64,000 bases of DNA. It comes from Cavenderia fasciculata (lineage: Eukaryota; Evosea; Eumycetozoa; Acytosteliales; Cavenderiaceae). The position numbers and the translations under genes are program-made. The stretch is from positions 1,116,001 to 1,180,000 of the forward strand of contig NW_004457737.1 in NCBI RefSeq assembly GCF_000203815.1, read 5' to 3'. This document shows, in pieces, positions 1,861 to 47,322 of this stretch. Within the stretch, counting starts at the first letter, position 1. The number at the start of each line of letters is the position of its first letter. The notes beneath the pieces were generated by a model. It did no database searches. It was not told where the DNA came from and was given only the letters and a program-made list of their open reading frames with translations.

Positions 1861-4800
1861 TTATTTTGGAAGTGGGTTCAACTTGCTTGCCATTTTTTTG
1901 TTATACATATTTGTTTTCATCAACTTTTGTCTATACATTACAGCACCGACTGCAATAGCAACGAGGCCTAGACCCCCGACGACACATCCAACGATGATCT
2001 TCCATTTATTATCGTCTGAACAGCTACCCGATTTATCGTTGACAACCAACAAAGGTGTAAAGTCTGGATCGAGAATACATTGTTGACATTGAGGCAACGT
2101 GATACCAATCATGGCAGACGATTGATCAGAGTCGATAGTGGTTTGATTAATGAGGAGTGTTTGTGAATAGGTTGTACGACCGTCTGCCAATGCAAAGTCG
2201 AGGAATCTTCCGTTGAATTGAATATTGTCTTTAAGTACTCTGAGGTATTGCAATGTACCATAATTGTCGTACGAGAATGGATCGATTTTAGTCTCTTGGC
2301 AATCATACTCTATCGATTGGTCATTGTTTACCGTTGTTTTCATAACCAATCGGAGTGTTGCGAAATTGGAATAATAATGCCATCCATTGATGGATACTGC
2401 CAGTTTGATGGAATTGGGTCCGATTGATAGTTGTTGGTTGCCAAATGTTACTGTTCTAGGTTGTTGCGAGAATGAAATATTGACAGTTACACTGGTCGTG
2501 TTGAGAAGACTAGTGTTGGCAATCACCAAATCATAAACTGCATTGATCACAGAGTTGGTAGTGGTAATATTCGTTATCCAACTATCAGTCAACAACTCTT
2601 TCAGTATCTCATTATCCAATCCAATCTCTTGAATGGCAACTATTTCAAAACCAAATTCAACTCCATCAACCTCAATTTTAGTTGTTGGTGATGTAGTATT
2701 TGGATTAAATGTTGTATTATCAGCAACTATAGATGACAACATAAAAGTTAGGTACATTTTAATAGTTAGTTATTATTGAATTAAATACATACACTTGGTT
2801 AAACAATTATCAACTGGATTATATTTATCTTCACATTGACAAACACCATTGACATTACATGTACCATGTCCATAACAATTTTGAGTTGTCTCTTCGCATA
2901 TTTCTTTTGGTGTCTTTGTACCTCCAGAGGTGGAGGTGGAGGTGGAGGTGGTACCAGTGGGTGGAGAATTGTCAATGAATTTAATGATATATGTTGTACT
3001 ATCAAATGTTAACCCATTTAGATCCAATTGAGCAGATGCGGGTCCAAAGGTTGTTGGTGATGAAACAAGTTGACAATTCATTTGGAATTGAGTGGACTCT
3101 GATTGATTGAAAATACAATTCATTGTATGATTGATTTTAATGGTTACATTGGCCAATGTAAATGGTCCAAAATCACCAAATAAACTAATTGATCTTTGTG
3201 TTGTATTTTGGTCATTAACAATTCCACTATTAATGAATGGATATGCTAGAAAAATAAAATAGAATTAATATTATAGGCAAGATATTATATATAGTATTTT
3301 GAATATTTACGTTTTGTACAATTATTATAATAACTTCTTTGATTTATATAACAATCACAAATACCTTGATTGTTACAGACACCATTTCCAGAACAATGAT
3401 TCGTAATTTGATTGCATTCGTCCAAGACTGTGACAATTACAAATTTGGATACCACCCAAAAACCATTGATTGTGATGTTGGCAGTTGCAATTCTATTCTC
3501 TGTTATTGGTGTTTGTTCGAGTTTGCAGGTAAGTACTTGAGTGAGCCATGACACCACGGTACATATACTTTTCGATCCATCTGGGTTATTAAATTCAACT
3601 GATGATGTAACATTGTTTGGACCAAAGTCTCCAGAAAATTGTATAATACTACCAGGTGCCCAATAAGAACCACCACTGTAAACATAATTAAGACTTGGGT
3701 ATACTAATAAATTAAAAAAAAGAAGAAAGGAGTAAATAATATAGTAGTAGAGTATAATATAATATAATATATAATATAATATATAATATAATATACAAAA
3801 CTAGATGATTGTTTGTAATGCGAACCTTGATTAAAAGTAATTGGATTTTGGATTTGGAGGTATGTATTACCAATTGTGAGAGTATAGTTTTGATTGGGTG
3901 GTGCTGGGATATAGTATGATATGGTCATGGATTGAGTGTCGATGATTGATGAGACCGATTGATACGAATCCATGGTTGCATTGGGGAAAATGTACCAGTT
4001 GACAACAGAAAAAGAAACTCGGACCTGTGCCAATCTACCTGGATATTGAGTGACAGTATATTCGGTGACACTAAACCCAGCCTACATGATGGTGGTATCC
4101 AAGATATAGTTGTAGGTTTGATTGAGTGAGATGGCGAATGGTTGTGGAGGACCGGTTATTGGAGAGCCATAGGTGACCTCTATTTTACTATTTGGCGTCA
4201 ATACTTTGATATTGGTATTGTTGACGTTGGCAAATGTCCATCCCAAGTTTTTACCGGTCAATATACCCTTTCCAAACAACAGTACCAGGGGACTGTCGAC
4301 AGTGTAGTTACACACGAATCCAACTGGTTTGGTGAGTGGACCAGAATACCTGGCAGGTGAATCATAGCACCAAAAACAATCTGGGATCGATGTGATTCCA
4401 TTTTGAGTCTGGAGAGTCAATTTACCGAGCGAACAAAGAGAAGTTTCGTCTATGAGAGGCCCTACAAAACTGCTGCTAAACAAAACCGATAAATCAAGTG
4501 TACCATTTGAATTTTTTAAAATGTTTGTATAGTTGGTGATTGCGCTAAGTGTAGTAACTGCATTAAATGTTCTAAATGAAACAATATGCGGGATGGTTAG
4601 GTTAGGGTAACTAGTGGTGCTAGTAGTGGTAGTTTCCTTTCAAAAACATACAATGATTTTAGATTTGGTGTGATTGGAATATTTGGAATATTGGGAAATG
4701 TCGAATTATAACTACGCATACTTGTTAGACTTGTTGGGAACGTAGTAAACGGATAGCTTGTTGCAACTTGAGAATCACTTGATAGAGTGTGCAAAGGTTA

Positions 4801-12371: not shown

Positions 12372-13178
12372 TCAATCGTTCGAACCATGTATATGGATGT
12401 TGTTCTTGGGAGCAAGTCAATCAAACACAACATAAACAGACATCTTATATTGAAACAGTATTTATTGGAAGCATACACAACCAATCAACTCGATTCAATG
12501 TCACAGTTGTTCAATTCGAATACACCAACACCAGTTCATTCTTGGGTGAGGATATTCAAGTATCATCAAACTCGATCAAGTACAATCAAAATTATTGATT
12601 GGATATGGTCATCACCTATCAACACACTCGAAGTTATATTCCATTCTCGATCAGATTCAGTTGAATATGACGATTGTGGTAGGATGAAAATTGGAAATGA
12701 TGTATCTCCAGGTGATCAAATTATATGGACTCGAGTTCAAGTTGGAAGAACATTGCTCAACTGCAAGATAGCTAGTAGAATGATTATCGACAACTCAATA
12801 ATCATGCCATCAAAAGTCACAATCCTTCCAGATGATCCACTCTCTCAACAAACTGACAAACAAGGGTTCAACCTTTTGACAACGTTTCACATACCAAGGT
12901 TCAGCCACTCGGTTGAGCTAGATCCGGTATTCAACGCAGTCATTCTTGATGATGACTCTGCCTTGCCATACGAATGCATAGAGACTACAGATTCACTCCC
13001 AAAAGTCATCGTCTCTGTGCTTTTATCGATATTCCTTCTCTCTATTACAATAGTGGCAATCATTGTATGGAAGGTGGAACCCCCAACGAACAGACCATAT
13101 AGAGAAGCAGTAGAAATGGATCCTATTCCAAATACTGACCAAGAAAACGCTGACCAACAACAACAACAAAATAATTAA
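12372..13178 (+). pseudogene. Decayed C-terminal fragment of a comC-like EGF/TIG membrane protein
   Basis: Two overlapping frames both align by eye with the C-terminal part of the minus-strand EGF/TIG gene at 1861. In about 12372-12590 one frame reads VVQFEYTNTSSFLGEDIQVS, SSNSIKYNQ, parallel to VTFGNQQLSIGPNSIKL of the paralogue. From about 12590 a different frame continues with IKIIDWIWSSPINTLEVIF, then FHIPRFSHSVELDPVFNAV, a membrane helix (PKVIVSVLLSIFLLSITIVA, extending ~4 more residues) and a Gln/Asn-rich tail, ending at 13178. So a frameshift separates the halves, and there is no signal peptide, LRR or EGF part. The 263-codon frame from 12387 is therefore not a good gene model. If transcribed it would be a type-III-like membrane stub. 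Confidence 0.6.
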
Positions 13179-37690: not shown

Positions 37691-40427
37691 ATGGACAACG
37701 GTACTACAACTTCTACTTCTACTACTTTGGTAGACATTTCAATACTAAGATTGGTATTGATTAGAGACAAGTTTCTATCAAACAAAATATTTCAATGTAT
37801 TCATGATATACATGAACTGATAGTAAAGAATACTAGGATGCCATCAAAACCACACAAGATGATGGTGATTGTCAAAGGTAGAGAAGTGCGTGTATCTCTA
37901 TTACACATGATTAGATTTGGTTGGACGGATTTATTCATTCAAGAGTTTGATCGAATGGTTGATATGGAGATATCAGATGTCCCCAGTCCACACGATCCAC
38001 GTCGTATACAAATAAAGTTTACTGGGTATGTCCGTGCAGCCTCTATAGTTGGCAACCAAAGAATACTCACCTATTTACATGGGTTCACTAGCCGAGTCGC
38101 CAAAGGAACACATCTAAAAGATATCGTTGACATGCGATTCGCAGACGCCGATGTAACAGATGCTATCAAATTCAACAACTTTGATAATCTAAAATGGTTA
38201 CTCAATCTATTACCTCCATTACTTTTAAATTTTGATACAGATGCTAGACCATTAGCTAGTTGGTTTAAAAGTGCAATCAAATATAAAAAAGGAAAAGACC
38301 AAGAACAAGATATCCAACAACAACAACAACAACAACAAACAAACTCAGAAGAAATGAATAATGAAATGTTAAAGTTATTAATTGAAAAGTATGGAGAAAA
38401 GATAAAGGAATATAAGAAGTTGTTCCCTGGTGTTGGTGTGGATTATTTGTTTTTCGAGTTGGACGGTGATTGGGTAGAGGATTATTGCAATCATCGACCA
38501 AAGAAAGAATTAGTTGAATTTATTAAATTGGTGGTTGACCACAAGATGGTCAAAGAGGCAGCTTGGGCGTTTCTCTTGGCTGCTGCCATCAAACACGATT
38601 GTAAACAATTGGTTCTTGACGCGATACCAAAACAATTGGATCTTTATATTGATCAGTTGTTGGTACTTCCAATTGACTCGGTCGAGTTGATGCAATACAC
38701 TATTGAAAATTTTGTAAAGTCTGATGTAATGTCAAACTTTATTATCAAGATGTATGAAATGGCGGCAAAGAAAGGGTACTATGATATTATAGTCTATCTA
38801 CATTCACTTCAACAACCTCCACCATCATCACTTTTAGAAGTGTCACATCCATCAATCATTAAACGTTTGTTTGTGGAACCAGACCAACAGGCTAGAGACA
38901 TGGTATCAAGTTGGAATAAAAAATGGTGGATTGTTGGTGACCTACACATTGATGTAGTATCAGACTTGACACTACTCGAATTTATATTTAACATGTCAAA
39001 CGTCACTATTCAACCGAGTAGTATGTTTCCTTCATCACTCTACACGAATGGTGGAAAGGAGGCGTTAGAGTTACTAGACCGACTGGTTGTAGAAAGGGAT
39101 GTAGTGGTCAATTACAGCCCTCTTTGGAGTATGGTTACGAGTAGTCGTAAACGTTATAACTTGGATGAAATCAAGTATATCATTGAAAGGTATCCAGAGT
39201 CTGCCATCAAACCAAAGTCAGCACCCATTCGTAGGTTTCCAACACGTATCACATTACCGACGATCGAGCAACTATGCAGTAACATGGAATATGAAAAGGT
39301 ACGATTTCTATTCGACGCCAATGTGGTTGCAAGGAATGAAATATTTCAATTTGGTATTCTCACGTTGACCTCTGGTAGCTGTGTCAACTTTTTCGATCGA
39401 ATGGTTGGATCTGCCCCTATTATACCCATGACATCGTCATTCCCAGCCGATGACATGGACCGTGCCTTTGAAATGTTTAAATACTTGTGTGAACAGGTTG
39501 ACTATCAATCACTTGACAACTATCATCAAAATGTTCTACAACGGTCAACACCCATAGAACTATTCTCAGACAGATTGGTTGACATTGCGATCAAGAGTAA
39601 TCGATTCAGTATGGTTAAATATATTCTCGGCTTTGGGTCACCCCTTTTACACAGAGATTGGAATATCAATGCTAAGGGACTAGTCGAGACTGGTAACTTG
39701 CCACTCATCAAATATTTGGTCACCAACAAACACGTTACATTGACTAGTGAAGTGTTTGAAACATGTTGTTCACATGGTCAAGTTGATATCTTTGACTATA
39801 TGGTGGAAGAGTTAAAGATTGAACCACCAAAACAAGTTTTATTATTGTCTGCAGCATCAAGTAATAATTGGGAAATGGTTAAAAGGGTTGCTGCGTTAAT
39901 ATCAACCAATTCTATACCTAGACCAAAGTTATATCGTAAAGATTTAGGTTTATATTTTAGAAGTATGGTATTAAAGGAAAGAATCAAGGATCAAGACTTG
40001 TTTGAAATATCAAAGTATTTGGTACAATTTTATTGTGATCAGTACCCTGACCACCAATCAACATTGGTTCCAGAAGTGATTGAAGATGTCAAAAACATAT
40101 TCATATCGTCTCCCAGTACTCTACTGTCACTAGCCTTGAAATTTACAGCTGACATTCAAACTGCTGTATTTTTCTTTCAACTATTTTATTTTGGTCAAAT
40201 CACTACCAGTAGTGACAATCAGATTGTACCGATACCAGAACATTTAAAAGATCATTTTTGGAAAATGTTTCCTAGAGATTACACTCATATAGTTTTACAA
40301 GCTTTACAAATTGGTCATCTTCCACTTATCCAATATTTCAAAACAGTTCATCATCTTGTAAAATTGGATGAACCCAAAGAAGAACCAACTGTCCAACAAC
40401 CCTACAATCCAAATAATAATATCAAAA

Positions 40428-40489
<62 letters not shown>

Positions 40490-40525
40490 AAAACAACTAA
40501 ATCTAGTTATTGTAATATAATGTAA
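37691..40525 (+). CDS. Ankyrin-like dictyostelid family protein, tandem copy 1, CaaX tail (CNIM)
   Basis: A single exon of 944 residues. The N-terminus carries the family signature VDISILRLVLIRDKFLSNKI, then a conserved LLHMIRFGWTDLFIQEFDRM block. Most of the protein is made of degenerate ankyrin-like helix pairs such as VETGNLPLIKYLVTNKHVTL and CSHGQVDIFDYMVEELKIEP, spaced about 30-35 residues apart. The last ~45 residues are a poly-Asn tract followed by TKTTKSSYCNIM; the final four residues fit a CaaX prenylation box with Met at the last position (farnesyl type). It is the first of three head-to-tail paralogues. There is no signal peptide. Function is unknown; large families of this kind are common in dictyostelids. 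Confidence 0.85.
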
Positions 40526-40678
40526 TAAATAAATAAATTCAAGGTTTAAATATATACATGTTTCTCTCTTTGAAGATTCTCGTCCTTTTCAAATATAAAT
40601 TAAAAAATTAATTAATATCTACTTTTGGGATGGGACCTTTGGTTTTTGGTCAGGCAACTTTTTTATTATTATTTAAAT

Positions 40679-43594
40679 ATGGATAATAATAGTTGTAATA
40701 ATAGTAATAATAATAATAATAATAATACTCATACGAGTTTAGATATAAATTTATTTAAATCAGTTATTATAAAGAATCGAGTATTATCAAATTATATATT
40801 TAATCATCATGTTAGAAATATACATAGACAAATAGAACGTACAACACCTAAGCGGGTGTTGATGAAAAAGGGTCGTGACATCAAGTCAATGTTATGGTTG
40901 ATGATTATATTTGGTTGGACTGATGACTTTGTTCAAGAGTTTGATCGACTCGTTAATATGGATGTAGCAGAACTATTCCTACCTTTTGAAGGCAACGACT
41001 ATACAAGATTACGTGTTTGTCATTTTGTAAAAGAGGCATCTCGAACAAACGACCATCGATTACTCAACTTTCTACATACCTTTTATTTGCCACCATCTGA
41101 AACACGTCATGCAAATATAAAGTCTTGGGCAGAGGCCTCACAACTAAAGATCAAGAACTTGACCTTTTTCGAATTCTCCAAAGGTATCGTGGACGATGCT
41201 ATCAAAGCGTGTAATGCTGAAGCTTTAAGATGGGTCATTGACAATGTATTCTTTCAATTTTGGACGAATGGTAAACCTCCAACTACCACTGAATCATCCG
41301 CCGGCGATGTTGTTTGGTTATCAATATCTTCAACCCTTGTAACTTGGTTAGACAATATTATACATTATGGTTGTAATCATCCTTCATCCTCTTCATCTTT
41401 ATCCTCTTCATCTTCTTCTTTATCTTCATCACACCCACATGAATTGTTGAAAATATTATTGGACAAGTTTAAAGAAGATATATTAGTATTCAAAGAGATG
41501 ACGGTCGATAAACCTAGAAACGATGATTTGTACTTTAAGTTATCATCGAATCTTGAATGGTCGACCTTTTACAGCAACCGACCTAAACAAGAGTTGAGGG
41601 ATTTCATCGAGATGGCGCAACCACTAAAGTTGATCAGAAACGGTGATTGGCCATCCATCATGTCAGTGGCTATTAAACTCGACTGTAAAGATACCCAACA
41701 CCTGGTACTACAAAACATGAAGGCAAACACACTCCTTTTCGAGCATATACTACTGTTCCCCACCGAATGCTTAGAGATGATCCAATTTTATTTCGAACGG
41801 TCTTTGATTACACCACTGGCCATCCGAGAACTCTATGTCAAAGCGGCACAAAACGGACACTTGGAGACTATCCTCTACATCTACAGCAAGGAACAAAAGA
41901 TACCTCCACTTACCACACTGCTGCAATACGCACATCCAACAATCATCCAAAGTCTGTTTGTCGAACCAATTGAAGACCGTATTCGAGAGATGGTCGATAG
42001 TTGGCGTATGACATGGACCGTTCGTGAACTTGGCGACAACATAGTATCGGATCCTCAACTATTAGATGTGGTTCTCAAGAAGATACCCAACGCCAAATTC
42101 CAATGGGACTCTCAATTTATTTTAAAGATGTATAGACTTGCCAATAGAGATGGTGTCAATAACAACAACAAAGAAAAGAAACCAATGGTATTGGATCAAT
42201 ATGCATCGGCCAAGAATGTGGTAGTCAACTATTCCGATTTATTGGGAGAGGTTGCAAGTCGCGGAGATATGGATGAAATTAGGTACATTGCTACGACGTA
42301 TCCTCAGTCTTGGGTCAAGACCGAGTACGAACCTGTCATATCCTTTCCAACAACTCTTGGGCTATCGTCGATTGAACATTTGTGCAGTCAGCATTTGTAT
42401 CAACAGGTACACTTGCTATTCGAGTTACAACTGGTTTCGTTAAACACTATGTTTGAATACAACAATCATATGTTTACTTCAAATATCCCACCACTATTAT
42501 TCGATAAAATAATCGGGTCTAGTCCAACTCTACCGGTTTATTCACCAGCCAGTAGTACGACAACTGGCGACGACCAATTCTTTAGCCTATTTAAATACCT
42601 CTGTGAAAGTGTCAGGTATCAGAGCTTGGCCAGTTACTCTCGTAATGGTCCACACCCAGTCTCTCCATTTTTCGAATTATATTCACACAAATTGATTGAT
42701 ATCGCCATCAAAAAGAATCGATTCAATATTGTCGATTATATTCTCGGATCGAAACTATCAATCTTTCAATCGGTCGATCGCACCATACACATTGACGTGC
42801 TCTTTGCCACTGGCAGCCAACCTCTGATCAAATTATTCGTCGACCACTCCTATATCACCATTACCAAAGACATGTTTAAATCGTGTTGTGAGAATGCTCA
42901 AATCGATATATTTGATTACATGGTCGATGAACTACACCTTGTACCAGATATGCGTGTACTAAGCTACGCAGCAAAAGGAATGAATTGGGGAATGGTTAAA
43001 TACATCTCGAATCTAATATCAACCAAACCTCATTTATTTGGAAAAGCCACCTCTGAACCATCACCATCACCATCACCAATCCTCATCACAGCCAGTGAAA
43101 TCAACGAGTTGATAAAATGTGTCAATAATGAAAGTCCGAGCCCTGCCACCAAAGATGCTCTCAAAATTACAAAATATTTAATTCTACTCTACTGCAAACA
43201 ATATAGTGACCCTGAAACCAAAATAGATCCAAAAGAATTAATATACCTATTTAACGGTCGAATGGATGCTATTAGACATCACATGTCTGTCGATTCTGAC
43301 TGTGTCATCTTTATATTGCAACTATTTTATTTTGGTAATATTATGACTGTTGACGAGGATGGTAAAGACCTCTCAATGGTTCCCATTCCCAATCATCTAA
43401 GACCACACTTTTGGGTGATGGATACAAAAGGTTACAATACCTATCTCAAAGTGTCACTTCGATTTGGTCACCTTTTACTCATCCAATTCTTTATTGATCA
43501 TCATGATCATCCTAAAAACTTAAAAGTAATAGAATCACATGCTATTACAGAAAAGTATCATAATAGTTATTTTAAATATTGTTCAATTTTGTAA
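40679..43594 (+). CDS. Ankyrin-like dictyostelid family protein, tandem copy 2, CaaX tail (CSIL)
   Basis: A single exon; the first true ATG is at 40679 (971 residues), only ~150 bp after the upstream paralogue stops. The N-terminus begins with an Asn-rich leader and the family signature LDINLFKSVIIKNRVLSNYI, then LWLMIIFGWTDDFVQEFDRL. Ankyrin-like units recur (AAQNGHLETILYIYSKEQKI; CENAQIDIFDYMVDELHLVP). It aligns with copy 1 over its whole length but is strongly diverged. It lacks the C-terminal poly-Asn tract, yet still ends in YFKYCSIL, a CaaX box whose terminal Leu predicts geranylgeranylation. Third positions are less AT-rich than in the flanks, consistent with an expressed gene. Confidence 0.85.
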   Translation: MDNNSCNNSNNNNNNNTHTSLDINLFKSVIIKNRVLSNYIFNHHVRNIHRQIERTTPKRVLMKKGRDIKSMLWLMIIFGWTDDFVQEFDRLVNMDVAELFLPFEGNDYTRLRVCHFVKEASRTNDHRLLNFLHTFYLPPSETRHANIKSWAEASQLKIKNLTFFEFSKGIVDDAIKACNAEALRWVIDNVFFQFWTNGKPPTTTESSAGDVVWLSISSTLVTWLDNIIHYGCNHPSSSSSLSSSSSSLSSSHPHELLKILLDKFKEDILVFKEMTVDKPRNDDLYFKLSSNLEWSTFYSNRPKQELRDFIEMAQPLKLIRNGDWPSIMSVAIKLDCKDTQHLVLQNMKANTLLFEHILLFPTECLEMIQFYFERSLITPLAIRELYVKAAQNGHLETILYIYSKEQKIPPLTTLLQYAHPTIIQSLFVEPIEDRIREMVDSWRMTWTVRELGDNIVSDPQLLDVVLKKIPNAKFQWDSQFILKMYRLANRDGVNNNNKEKKPMVLDQYASAKNVVVNYSDLLGEVASRGDMDEIRYIATTYPQSWVKTEYEPVISFPTTLGLSSIEHLCSQHLYQQVHLLFELQLVSLNTMFEYNNHMFTSNIPPLLFDKIIGSSPTLPVYSPASSTTTGDDQFFSLFKYLCESVRYQSLASYSRNGPHPVSPFFELYSHKLIDIAIKKNRFNIVDYILGSKLSIFQSVDRTIHIDVLFATGSQPLIKLFVDHSYITITKDMFKSCCENAQIDIFDYMVDELHLVPDMRVLSYAAKGMNWGMVKYISNLISTKPHLFGKATSEPSPSPSPILITASEINELIKCVNNESPSPATKDALKITKYLILLYCKQYSDPETKIDPKELIYLFNGRMDAIRHHMSVDSDCVIFILQLFYFGNIMTVDEDGKDLSMVPIPNHLRPHFWVMDTKGYNTYLKVSLRFGHLLLIQFFIDHHDHPKNLKVIESHAITEKYHNSYFKYCSIL

Positions 43595-44202
43595 ATTAAA
43601 CTAAACTTTCTTAAAAAACAATTCTTATTGCTTCTCTAATGGATTGGTTGAAGAAATATTTTAGAGATCAAAAAACTTTATTTGAAATGACAATGTAAAT
43701 TAATTCATATGCATTTACCAAAAAAGTTCTCTCGGTTTTTTCGAATCTAATTGTTTCATTTGGTGTTTCTTTGTTAAACTAGTTATATATTCAGCTGTAA
43801 AAGGTTGATTGTCTGGTGTTTTCATGGGAATTCTAATATTTAATTGCAATTTACAACCATTTTGCTTCAACTTTTTGATAGATTCATTATTTCATTCATA
43901 CTCTTTTCCAGGGAACCGACCCTTAAAAAGTTGTTGTTGGTGTTGTTTGTGTTTTGTTTCCATTTTTTAAAAAATAAATATATAGATATAGATAATATTT
44001 GTTAAATGAATAAATGATCCAAATAGAAAATGTATAAAGATAAAATAATAATTAAAATAATTACAAGTATTGGGTGGTAAAAATTAAAATTCTATTTTAT
44101 TTTCAATTTATTTTTAATACTAGTTTCATCATCAAGGTTATAGCTTTTAATCATAAAAGTTATTAAAATTATAATTATGTTTGACTAGTGAATTCTAAAA
44201 GA
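43595..44202. other. Spacer between ankyrin-like copies 2 and 3, with a coding remnant
   Basis: About 600 bp. The middle holds a minus-strand coding-like frame (43715-43963, listed separately). The rest is AT-rich and should contain the promoter of copy 3. Confidence 0.5.
43715..43963 (-). pseudogene. 82-codon frame with one internal TGA, unrecognised
   Basis: From ATG 43963 to TAA 43715 the frame is continuous except for a TGA at codon 24. Its residues look like real protein: LFKGRFPGKEYE before the TGA, then KLKQNGCKLQLNIRIPMKTP and TAEYITSLTKKHQMKQLDSK after it. It is most likely a decayed gene or exon. A UGA-encoded selenocysteine is possible in principle because dictyostelids make selenoproteins, but the context does not match a selenoprotein I know. 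Confidence 0.4.
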
Positions 44203-46014
44203 ATGATTAGTAGTGATAATGATAGTAGTAGTAGTAATCGTACTACTCTAGATATAAATCTATTTAAAAGTGTAGTTGTCAGGAATAGAGTATTGTCATT
44301 GTTGATCTTTCAACAGCATGTTCGCGACATACATCTACACATACAGAGACAAGAGAAAGAGAAAAAGAAAAAGGTGGTGATTAGAAAAGGACATGAAATC
44401 AAGTCGATGCTGTGGCTGATGATCGTACATGGTTGGACCGATTGCTTTCTTCGCGAGTATGACAGGATTGCGAGATTGGCAGTATCAGACATCTACCCAA
44501 TCAATCAAACCTATCGACCACAACACACAAGACTGATCAAAGAAGCATCGAAAACAGGTAACCTAAAGATACTCAAACGTCTACGTCAGTGGGATGACGA
44601 CCAACCCCACCCTATATCTCGTGTTGATCAACTTTCAGCCAAACCATCAACTCTAAAGGATCTATTCACGTTTAGTCTTGACAGACACAACATTGAAAAT
44701 ATTATAAAGTCTGGTCATTCCGATACACTTGGTTGGGCTCTTTCAACTGTTCCATTCCAAACTAAATCAAGTAAATCTGATCCTCACTATGTCGGTGTGA
44801 ATGTACTTGTCAAGTGGTTGCAAGAAGCTGTCTTTTATAGTTTTGGGTATCAATCATATAAAGGATTGGACATTAATAATATGTCTGCTCAAAAGACAAG
44901 TATACAACTATTGAAAAGACTGCTGGATCGGTTTGGAGACGATATACTCGATTACAAAGACCAAACAAAAAGACAGAAAACAAAAGATGAACTATGGTTG
45001 GAATTTGGAGCATTGGAATACCAGAAACAAGAGTTGATTGACTTTGTCAATCTAGTCAACCCATTGAAACTGCTAACTGAAAGGGGATGGTATATTGTGG
45101 TCAAAGAAGCAATCAAACATGAGAGCAAGGATGTATTAAAGGTGGTTAGACACACCTTGCCAAATTTATCAATCGACTTTTGGTGTCACCCATCTCCATG
45201 TTCGTTGGATATGATTCAATTCCACTTTGACACTTGTACCATATTGGGAGACTTTGAATTCACCCCCACCTACGTACTCAACCCATTGTACAATAAGGCT
45301 GCATCGAGTGGTCGATATGACACCATACTCTACCTCCACCAAAAGTATCCTCGTGTGTGTCCACCAGTGACACTAGTCCAACACGCTCATCCCATCATCC
45401 TTGAACGTCTCTTTGTATCACCCGACCAACAAGCACAGGCCATGATATCTAGATGGAAACAAGACAAACCAATTGAATGGATTATACGTGACCTTCACAA
45501 AGATGTACTATCCAATCCTAGACTATTAGAGTTGGTATTTACACTTCCCAATACAACCTTTCATCTTTTTGATTCATTCATATCGGATGTTTATCAGTGT
45601 GGATGTAAAGAGTCAATAGAGGTGGTCGATCGATTCATAAAAGAAAAGAAATTGGTTGTAAATTACTCGTATCTGTTGTTAAAGGTTGCTCTCTCTGGTG
45701 GCTTGGATGAGATAGAACATATTGTCAGTCGTTATCCAAAATCGAGAGCATTCAAAAAGGAATTATCGGGAACCAAATCTGACGAGGACATGGAACCAAT
45801 AGAGTTCCCAACATCACTTAGTTTTTCACAAATCAAACAACTCTTTCAAGAAGGTCGGTACAAACAAGCTCGACTTCTTTTCCAATTGAATGCAGTGTTA
45901 CGTAATTCAATATACTACCTAAATATACCTGGTATCATTACTCTTCATTCACAATTATATCTTATCGATGAACTCTTATTGTACAGTCCAAGTTTAACAC
46001 CAAATTCCTCAACA

Positions 46015-46070
<56 letters not shown>

Positions 46071-47322
46071 AGATGAAATATATTCAACATTTAAATTCTT
46101 GTGTAAAAATGTAGATTACGATGGTATATCAAGATTGGAATGTGATAAATATGATTCTACCATTTCAAAATTCTCTGGTCTCCCACTCACCGATATTCAC
46201 CCAGTCGATAAATTGACAAATCATGCATTCATATCGGCCATCCAACGCAATCGTCTCGACATTATTAAATACATGGCCACTGCCAACCCACCACTTCTCG
46301 AGATGGTCATACCAAACCACACAGACCTCTTTGCCACTGGCAACGTCGAATTGATTTCCTATATCCGTTGGAACGTCGCCAAAAACTGGGATCCAATAGG
46401 AGTGGAATTTTTATTTAGAGACGTGTATGCCAAAGGTCAAGTGGAAATGTTTGATCTCATGGTCAATGAATTAAAACTCAAACCATCAAGCATCAAAATA
46501 CTGTTGTATTTTTCAAAAAGTTGGGATATGGTGAGACATACAATGAACCTATTCACAACAAACCCATCACTGTTTGGTGAAAATGGTGATATCCCACAAT
46601 TCGATTATATCTTTATCGATGACTGTATAAGGAATCTCTTTTGCAAACGAAAAAACTCTTGTTGTTCACCACAAGACTTGTACAAAATAGTAAATTATTG
46701 GGTTCAATTATATTTGAATCAATTTTACAACCCTACTATCAATGATAATGACAACAACAACAACAACAACAACAAGAAAAAGAAATCAAATAACAACAAC
46801 AACAACAAGAAAACAATGAATTCAAATGAACCAGCAGCAGTCCACAACAAAAGAGAAAAACAAAATGGAACAATGATAACTTGTCCAGAAATGTTCCATT
46901 TCTTTGGTTATATCAAACATTCTTCAGTCGATGGTGCAAAGGATTGTCTTGTATATTTAATCCAATTATTTTATTTTAAAAATATTATTATCTTTAATAA
47001 TCCAATTTATAATAATTATAATAATGATTGTAATAATATTTTATCATCTTCAAAAAATAATAATCATTTTATTTCTCATCCTCAAAATAACAATCAACAA
47101 CAACAACTTATATTTTCAATACCAAAACATTTACACCAATATGTATCAAGGATAGATGATGAACAATTATGTAATTTAATTGATTGTGCACTCGAATTTG
47201 GTTCTTTACCTCTAATCGATTTCTTTATCAGTATTCGAAAACAAACAACAGTTGGTACGAATGATAACCCAAACGACAATCATCACCATCATCATACCAA
47301 CAACAAATGTATAATTAATTAG
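44203..47322 (+). CDS. Ankyrin-like dictyostelid family protein, tandem copy 3, CaaX tail (CIIN)
   Basis: A single exon of 1039 residues from the ATG at 44203; an in-frame GTG at 44188 is not needed. It has the family signature LDINLFKSVVVRNRVLSLLI and LWLMIVHGWTDCFLREYDRI, then ankyrin-like units (AASSGRYDTILYLHQKYPRV; YAKGQVEMFDLMVNELKLKP). Two long AAT-encoded Asn tracts interrupt the helical units (near 46016-46068 and 46740-46810), so it is the longest copy. It ends in a His/Asn-rich stretch and NNKCIIN, again a CaaX-like box, with an unusual terminal Asn. Copies 1-3 share strand, single-exon structure and order, as expected from tandem duplication. Confidence 0.85.

What the first reader, a model, noticed from the sequence alone, without database searches (positions are those of the whole stretch)
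37691..47322. Three tandem ankyrin-like paralogues all keep a C-terminal CaaX box
The proteins are strongly diverged, yet each ends with a Cys at position -4: CNIM, CSIL and CIIN. The sequence just before it differs completely (poly-Asn in copy 1, none in copy 2, His/Asn in copy 3). Conservation of only the tail is what selection for prenylation would give. It would anchor ankyrin scaffolds to membranes, with farnesyl (Met) and geranylgeranyl (Leu) versions in one cluster. I know of no description of a prenylated ankyrin family in dictyostelids.
Basis: partly seen in the sequence, partly recalled or inferred. Interest (0 to 1): 0.75.

Follow-up and report, generated by a model that had tools for sequence, protein, structure and literature searches.

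The report
Ankyrin-like amoeba proteins with CaaX tails
A social amoeba carries a small family of long ankyrin-like proteins whose ends have drifted almost completely apart, except for a last-four-residue signal of the kind that normally adds a lipid and ties a protein to a membrane.

Summary
The window holds three intact tandem ORFs ending CNIM, CSIL and CIIN. The genome (Cavenderia fasciculata, from the DFA_09544 hit and matching contig length) holds two more full-length paralogues, ending CSIM and CQFQ. So 5 of 5 detected members have Cys at -4, although identity to copy 2 falls to 21% and synonymous sites are near saturation. It is the only Cys conserved in all five. Residues -5 to -30 are 8% identical between pairs. 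Among 80 non-family frames 1 has Cys at -4, and it reads into an apparent intron. A related tandem array lacks the tail (0 of 5).

Best reading: an ankyrin-like helical solenoid tethered by a flexible, prenylated tail, FTase-type for M and Q, GGTase-I-type for L, with CIIN permitted but unusual. Prenylation, localisation and function are inferred. Orthologues in other dictyostelids could not be tested; the protein searches were too insensitive. Prenylated ankyrin proteins are known elsewhere (TIMAP/MYPT3, Legionella AnkB), so this is a new family of a known kind.

The parts
37691..40525 (+). Copy 1: 944-aa ankyrin-like protein, ends SSYCNIM
   Evidence: Single open frame; Ank_3 and Ank_4 above Pfam gathering scores
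40511..40522 (+). CaaX codons of copy 1: TGT AAT ATA ATG (CNIM), then TAA
40340..40510 (+). Copy 1 hypervariable linker (57 aa, poly-Asn) between the last conserved block and the CaaX Cys
40679..43594 (+). Copy 2: 971-aa ankyrin-like protein, ends FKYCSIL
   Evidence: Single open frame; model is a run of paired helices with low-confidence tail 943-971
43580..43591 (+). CaaX codons of copy 2: TGT TCA ATT TTG (CSIL), then TAA
43493..43579 (+). Copy 2 linker (29 aa), mostly modelled without structure
44203..47322 (+). Copy 3: 1039-aa ankyrin-like protein, ends NNKCIIN
   Evidence: Single open frame; Ank_4 below gathering score
47308..47319 (+). CaaX codons of copy 3: TGT ATA ATT AAT (CIIN), then TAG; X = Asn is atypical
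47227..47307 (+). Copy 3 linker (27 aa, His/Asn-rich)
40730..40963 (+). N-terminal module of copy 2 (approximate limits), shared by the five members and, weakly, by the tandem array on contig C18 (found with copy 1 as query); no Pfam match

Best explanation
A family of at least five genes of Cavenderia fasciculata: three tandem copies here, one on contig C17 and a distant one on C3. It encodes long ankyrin-like helical solenoids ending in a flexible hypervariable linker and a CaaX box kept by selection. The likely mechanism is this. The cytosolic prenyltransferases add a lipid to the Cys at -4: FTase for CNIM, CSIM, CQFQ and probably CIIN, and GGTase-I for CSIL. Standard CaaX processing may follow. 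The solenoid is then held on the cytosolic face of a membrane as a protein-binding scaffold. Shown: the ORFs, the tails, their selective conservation, and three prenyltransferase-beta-like loci in the genome. Inferred: the lipid, the enzyme assignment, the membrane and the scaffold role.
For: 5 of 5 full-length family members found in the genome have Cys at -4. It is the only fully conserved one of 47 Cys-bearing columns; 0 of 20,000 random placements of the Cys gave any such column, a control that ignores homology. Flanking tail identity is 8%, against 100% at -4. dN/dS for the closest pair is about 0.2 (dN 0.34, dS 1.60), so the proteins are constrained while synonymous sites are near saturation. 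-2 is I, I, I, I, F. The copy 2 tail is modelled at pLDDT about 31, which fits the flexible linker that PrePS describes (PMC1175975). In the yeast FTase screen the strongest exclusions are D/E/K/R at a2 and K/P/R at X, so by those rules all five tails are permitted (PMC10320760, passages). Three prenyltransferase-beta-like loci are present. A related tandem array lacks the tail (0 of 5).
Confidence: 0.8

Rival explanations
1. The shared Cys is inherited residue rather than function: the paralogues are recent or the tails slow, and Cys at -4 has simply not been lost yet.
For: All five are homologous, so tails are not independent.
Against: Synonymous sites are near saturation in 9 of 10 pairs (dS 1.60-2.89) and past it in one; tails are only 8% identical at -5 to -30; no other Cys of the proteins is kept in all five.
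Confidence: 0.05
2. The tails are artefacts of reading through introns: the true mRNAs splice before or at the Cys and the proteins end elsewhere.
For: The only control frame with Cys at -4 (L030) looks like such an artefact, and the public model DFA_09544 of the C17 paralogue splices the tail away. The Cys codon of copy 1 (GTAATA) and copy 3 (GTATAA) could be read as weak donors (sequence).
Against: At the same codon the other three have GTTCAA, GTTCTA and GTCAAT, which do not look like donors. Alignable sequence runs in frame up to the linker in all five, and DFA_09544 removes stretches that its paralogues keep. Copy 2 starts 153 bases after copy 1 ends.
Confidence: 0.07
3. The conserved C-terminal Cys serves another purpose, such as palmitoylation, a redox or metal role, or a C-terminal peptide recognised by a PDZ-like or degron receptor.
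For: X varies (M, L, N, M, Q), and a C-terminal hydrophobic residue could be a docking peptide in some members.
Against: Exact -4 spacing to the stop together with hydrophobic a2 in 5 of 5 is the CaaX signature; the last 30 residues of each member hold no second Cys.
Confidence: 0.08

Closest known systems
MYPT3 / TIMAP (PPP1R16A/B; gene names recalled), prenylated ankyrin-repeat subunits of protein phosphatase 1
   Same: Ankyrin repeats plus a C-terminal prenylation motif that mediates plasma-membrane association (PMC3560227, passages)
   Different: TIMAP has 567 residues with five ankyrin repeats and a PP1-binding motif; here the proteins have 900-1039 aa and no RVxF-like motif shared by all
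Legionella pneumophila AnkB effector (F-box, ankyrin repeats, CaaX, farnesylated by the host)
   Same: Ankyrin repeats with Cys at -4; shows that host enzymes can farnesylate an ankyrin protein (PMC5506055, passages)
   [quoted passage not shown] no Pfam F-box match here, and the prokaryote scan confirmed no relative
Tandem array of ankyrin-like genes on contig C18 of the same genome
   Same: Similar N-terminal module of about 70 aa (six hits, E 1.8e-4 to 3.7e-3 with copy 1) and tandem arrangement
   Different: Genes appear to have introns; 4 of 5 long C-terminal exons carry a CLIP-containing tail and 0 of 5 have Cys at -4
Dictyostelium lamin NE81 and Ras-type CaaX proteins
   [quoted passage not shown] Ras recalled)
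   Different: Unrelated protein bodies (recalled)

Membership tests
CaaX-box prenylation substrates | Cys at -4 from the C-terminus | tested here: met
   5 of 5 members
CaaX-box prenylation substrates | Aliphatic or at least uncharged a2 and permitted X | tested here: met
   a2 = I,I,I,I,F; X = L,M,M,N,Q, none excluded by the main yeast FTase rules; N at X is atypical
CaaX-box prenylation substrates | Flexible, mostly hydrophilic linker of about 11 residues before the Cys | tested here: inconclusive
   Copy 2 tail modelled at very low confidence; linkers of 15-57 aa, but copy 2 and the C3 copy have hydrophobic or aromatic residues near the Cys
CaaX-box prenylation substrates | Attached prenyl group | not testable with these tools
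   needs labelling or mass spectrometry
Ankyrin-repeat proteins | Recognisable ankyrin repeats by profile | tested here: inconclusive
   Copy 1 has Ank_3 25.6 and Ank_4 25.5 bits, over cut-offs 22.3 and 22.7; copies 2 and 3 are below cut-off; Ank_4 found in 4 of 5 members at E up to 10
Ankyrin-repeat proteins | Ankyrin-like solenoid fold | tested here: inconclusive
MYPT3/TIMAP family | Conserved PP1-binding RVxF-type motif | tested here: not met
   Loose pattern absent from copy 2 and at no column shared by all of the others
AnkB-type F-box/ankyrin/CaaX proteins | F-box domain | tested here: inconclusive
   No Pfam F-box match at E up to 10 for the five proteins or the N-terminal pieces of the three window copies; a diverged F-box could be missed

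The most novel reading that the evidence does not exclude
Dictyostelids have evolved their own class of prenyl-anchored ankyrin scaffolds, to which Legionella AnkB is similar in design. Members sort to different membranes by switching the X residue (farnesyl against geranylgeranyl, one base apart between CSIM and CSIL), as part of a fast-diverging, possibly phagosome-facing or self/non-self gene family.
Probability: 0.1. Interest if true: 0.75.

Novelty: new member of a known kind. Interest (0 to 1): 0.45.

Why it matters
It gives a concrete, testable function (lipid anchoring) to a family of unannotated ankyrin-like genes of a social amoeba. It also suggests that the signal is hidden by a faulty public gene model in one member (DFA_09544). 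If true, dictyostelids have a native ankyrin-plus-CaaX class comparable in design to mammalian TIMAP/MYPT3 and to a Legionella effector that exploits host farnesylation. The CSIM/CSIL pair offers a natural test of whether one base change redirects a scaffold between lipid types.

Tried and rejected
Orthologues in other dictyostelids: three protein searches returned only DFA_09544 or nothing. One search, on residues 18-118 of copy 2, had 6 candidates and did not list even DFA_09544, which is homologous there. So these searches say nothing about absence elsewhere, and no claim of lineage restriction is made.

Viral and prokaryotic relatives: 78 and 591 pattern matches, none confirmed by tblastn. 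A viral or bacterial source is not supported, nor excluded.

F-box at the N-terminus: considered because of AnkB; no Pfam match.

PP1-binding motif, as in MYPT3/TIMAP: not shared.

Intron read-through as the source of the tails: considered because the one control frame with Cys at -4 looks like such a case (L030: frame ends at a GTATGT donor, and the frame after the next TAATAG reads as an ankyrin-like exon). Judged unlikely for the family, but not excluded for copies 1 and 3 by sequence alone.

PDB relatives by sequence profile: none at E up to 0.1. Fold matches absent from the lists are not taken as evidence.

Pooled control: 80 frames, including some that are probably not genes or are exons only. 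The 0 of 45 window control also contains overlapping antisense frames. The C18 tails rest on open frames, without transcript evidence.

In one search the loci whose match lies on the minus strand were read on the wrong strand; one search repeated them correctly for the loci chosen there (22 of those fetched), and the locus part is not used.

Full report
What is there. The window holds three complete single-frame genes in tandem on the + strand, at 37691-40525, 40679-43594 and 44203-47322, coding for 944, 971 and 1039 aa and ending CNIM, CSIL and CIIN. The window lies at 1116001-1180000 of contig C1 of a 31-Mb genome in 21 contigs. The one protein hit of the database search is DFA_09544 of Cavenderia fasciculata, on a contig of 941,765 bases, the length of contig C17 of this genome; its sequence follows the C17 ORF. 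So the species is C. fasciculata.

Family members in the genome. A search with copy 2 gave, besides the three, a full-length paralogue on C17 (54% identity) and a distant one on C3 (25%). Searches with copies 1 and 3 and with the C3 protein gave no further full-length member; these searches score only the best candidates, so the family may be larger. The C17 ORF has 900 aa and ends DSCSIM. The C3 ORF has 967 aa and ends SFCQFQ. So 5 of 5 detected members have Cys at -4. The public model DFA_09544 (699 aa) belongs to the C17 copy but skips stretches that the paralogues keep and replaces the end, so it lacks CSIM. The uninterrupted 900-aa frame and its alignment to the paralogues up to the linker suggest that the model is wrong.

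Is it chance? Identity to copy 2 is 53, 36, 32 and 21%. Synonymous sites are near saturation in nine of ten pairs (dS 1.60-2.89) and past it in the tenth; the closest pair has dN 0.34 and dS 1.60, so the proteins are constrained. Of 47 alignment columns with any Cys, one has it in all five, and that is the CaaX column; none of 20,000 random placements gave any such column, though that control ignores homology. Between pairs, residues -5 to -30 agree in 21 of 260 comparisons (8%), -4 in 10 of 10, and -2 in 6 of 10. The a2 residues are I, I, I, I and F. As background, 48 closed frames of at least 150 aa in the window include 3 with Cys at -4, the family members, so 0 of 45 others. In the window plus fetched loci it is 1 of 80 non-family frames of at least 200 aa; that frame (L030) runs into an apparent GTATGT donor, and an ankyrin-like exon follows downstream, so its end is probably an intron artefact. 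A related tandem array on C18 shares the N-terminal module but has 0 of 5 Cys at -4 in its long C-terminal exons.

Would the tails be prenylated? The comprehensive yeast FTase screen (PMC10320760, abstract and passages) names D/E/K/R at a2 and then K/P/R at X as the main exclusions, and reports I at a2 and M at X as positive in the Ras reporter and Q at X as positive in the Ydj1 reporter. By those rules all five tails are allowed. Yeast GGTase-I's canonical motif has L, or F, I, M or V, at X (PMC11304957, passages), which points to CSIL but would also accept M; some FTase substrates have L at X (PMC1175975 section 6). PrePS adds a flexible hydrophilic linker of about 11 residues (PMC1175975, passages). 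Copies 1 and 3 and the C17 copy fit; copy 2 and the C3 copy have aromatic or aliphatic residues close to the Cys. CIIN is the weakest of the five. The genome has three loci matching the prenyltransferase beta family, the number expected (from general knowledge) for FTase, GGTase-I and RabGGTase; which is which was not tested. The closest pair, CSIL and CSIM, differ at X by one base, TTG against ATG, so a switch of lipid by a single change is plausible but untested.

What it works like, and what it is. [quoted passage not shown] It is not shown to be a member of either family: no RVxF-type motif shared by all and no Pfam F-box match. BTBD11, an ankyrin and BTB protein with CWLS, is named as a putative farnesylation target in PMC3188499 (passage). 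Paper searches for dictyostelid ankyrin proteins with CaaX, prenylation or farnesylation, or for this species and ankyrin, listed nothing of this kind; I saw the listings (20 of 51 papers, 13 of 17), and the library lacks most subscription papers.

Verdict. The selective conservation of the CaaX box is well supported. Prenylation is the best explanation, and a membrane-tethered scaffold is the likely but untested function. The main gap is the absence of orthologues: the protein searches were not sensitive enough to list even the C17 paralogue's public model from its N-terminal part.

Noticed in passing
L002:1432-4134 (G000:C17:189882-192530, - strand) and protein P0001: Public model DFA_09544 appears to be mis-spliced: it drops stretches that the paralogues keep and the likely true end with CSIM.
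   Followed up: partly
L067 and L068 (G000:C18:791001-811000): Tandem array of ankyrin-like genes, apparently with introns, sharing the N-terminal module of the window family; 4 of 5 long C-terminal exons end with a CLIP-containing tail that is not a CaaX box.
   Followed up: partly
G000:C1:40091-41238, G000:C18:1441537-1442758, G000:C3:1389441-1390596: Three loci matching the prenyltransferase beta family (PF00432), as would be expected for FTase, GGTase-I and RabGGTase.
   Followed up: partly
window 1861-2757 (-), window 12387-13178 (+), L002:3-962 (+): ORFs with Asn/Thr-rich, possibly extracellular sequence and one hydrophobic stretch near the C-terminus; one lies beside the C17 paralogue. 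They look alike by eye only.
   Followed up: no
window 47308-47322: Copy 3 alone ends in TAG, the other four members in TAA, and it alone has the atypical X residue (CIIN).
   Followed up: no
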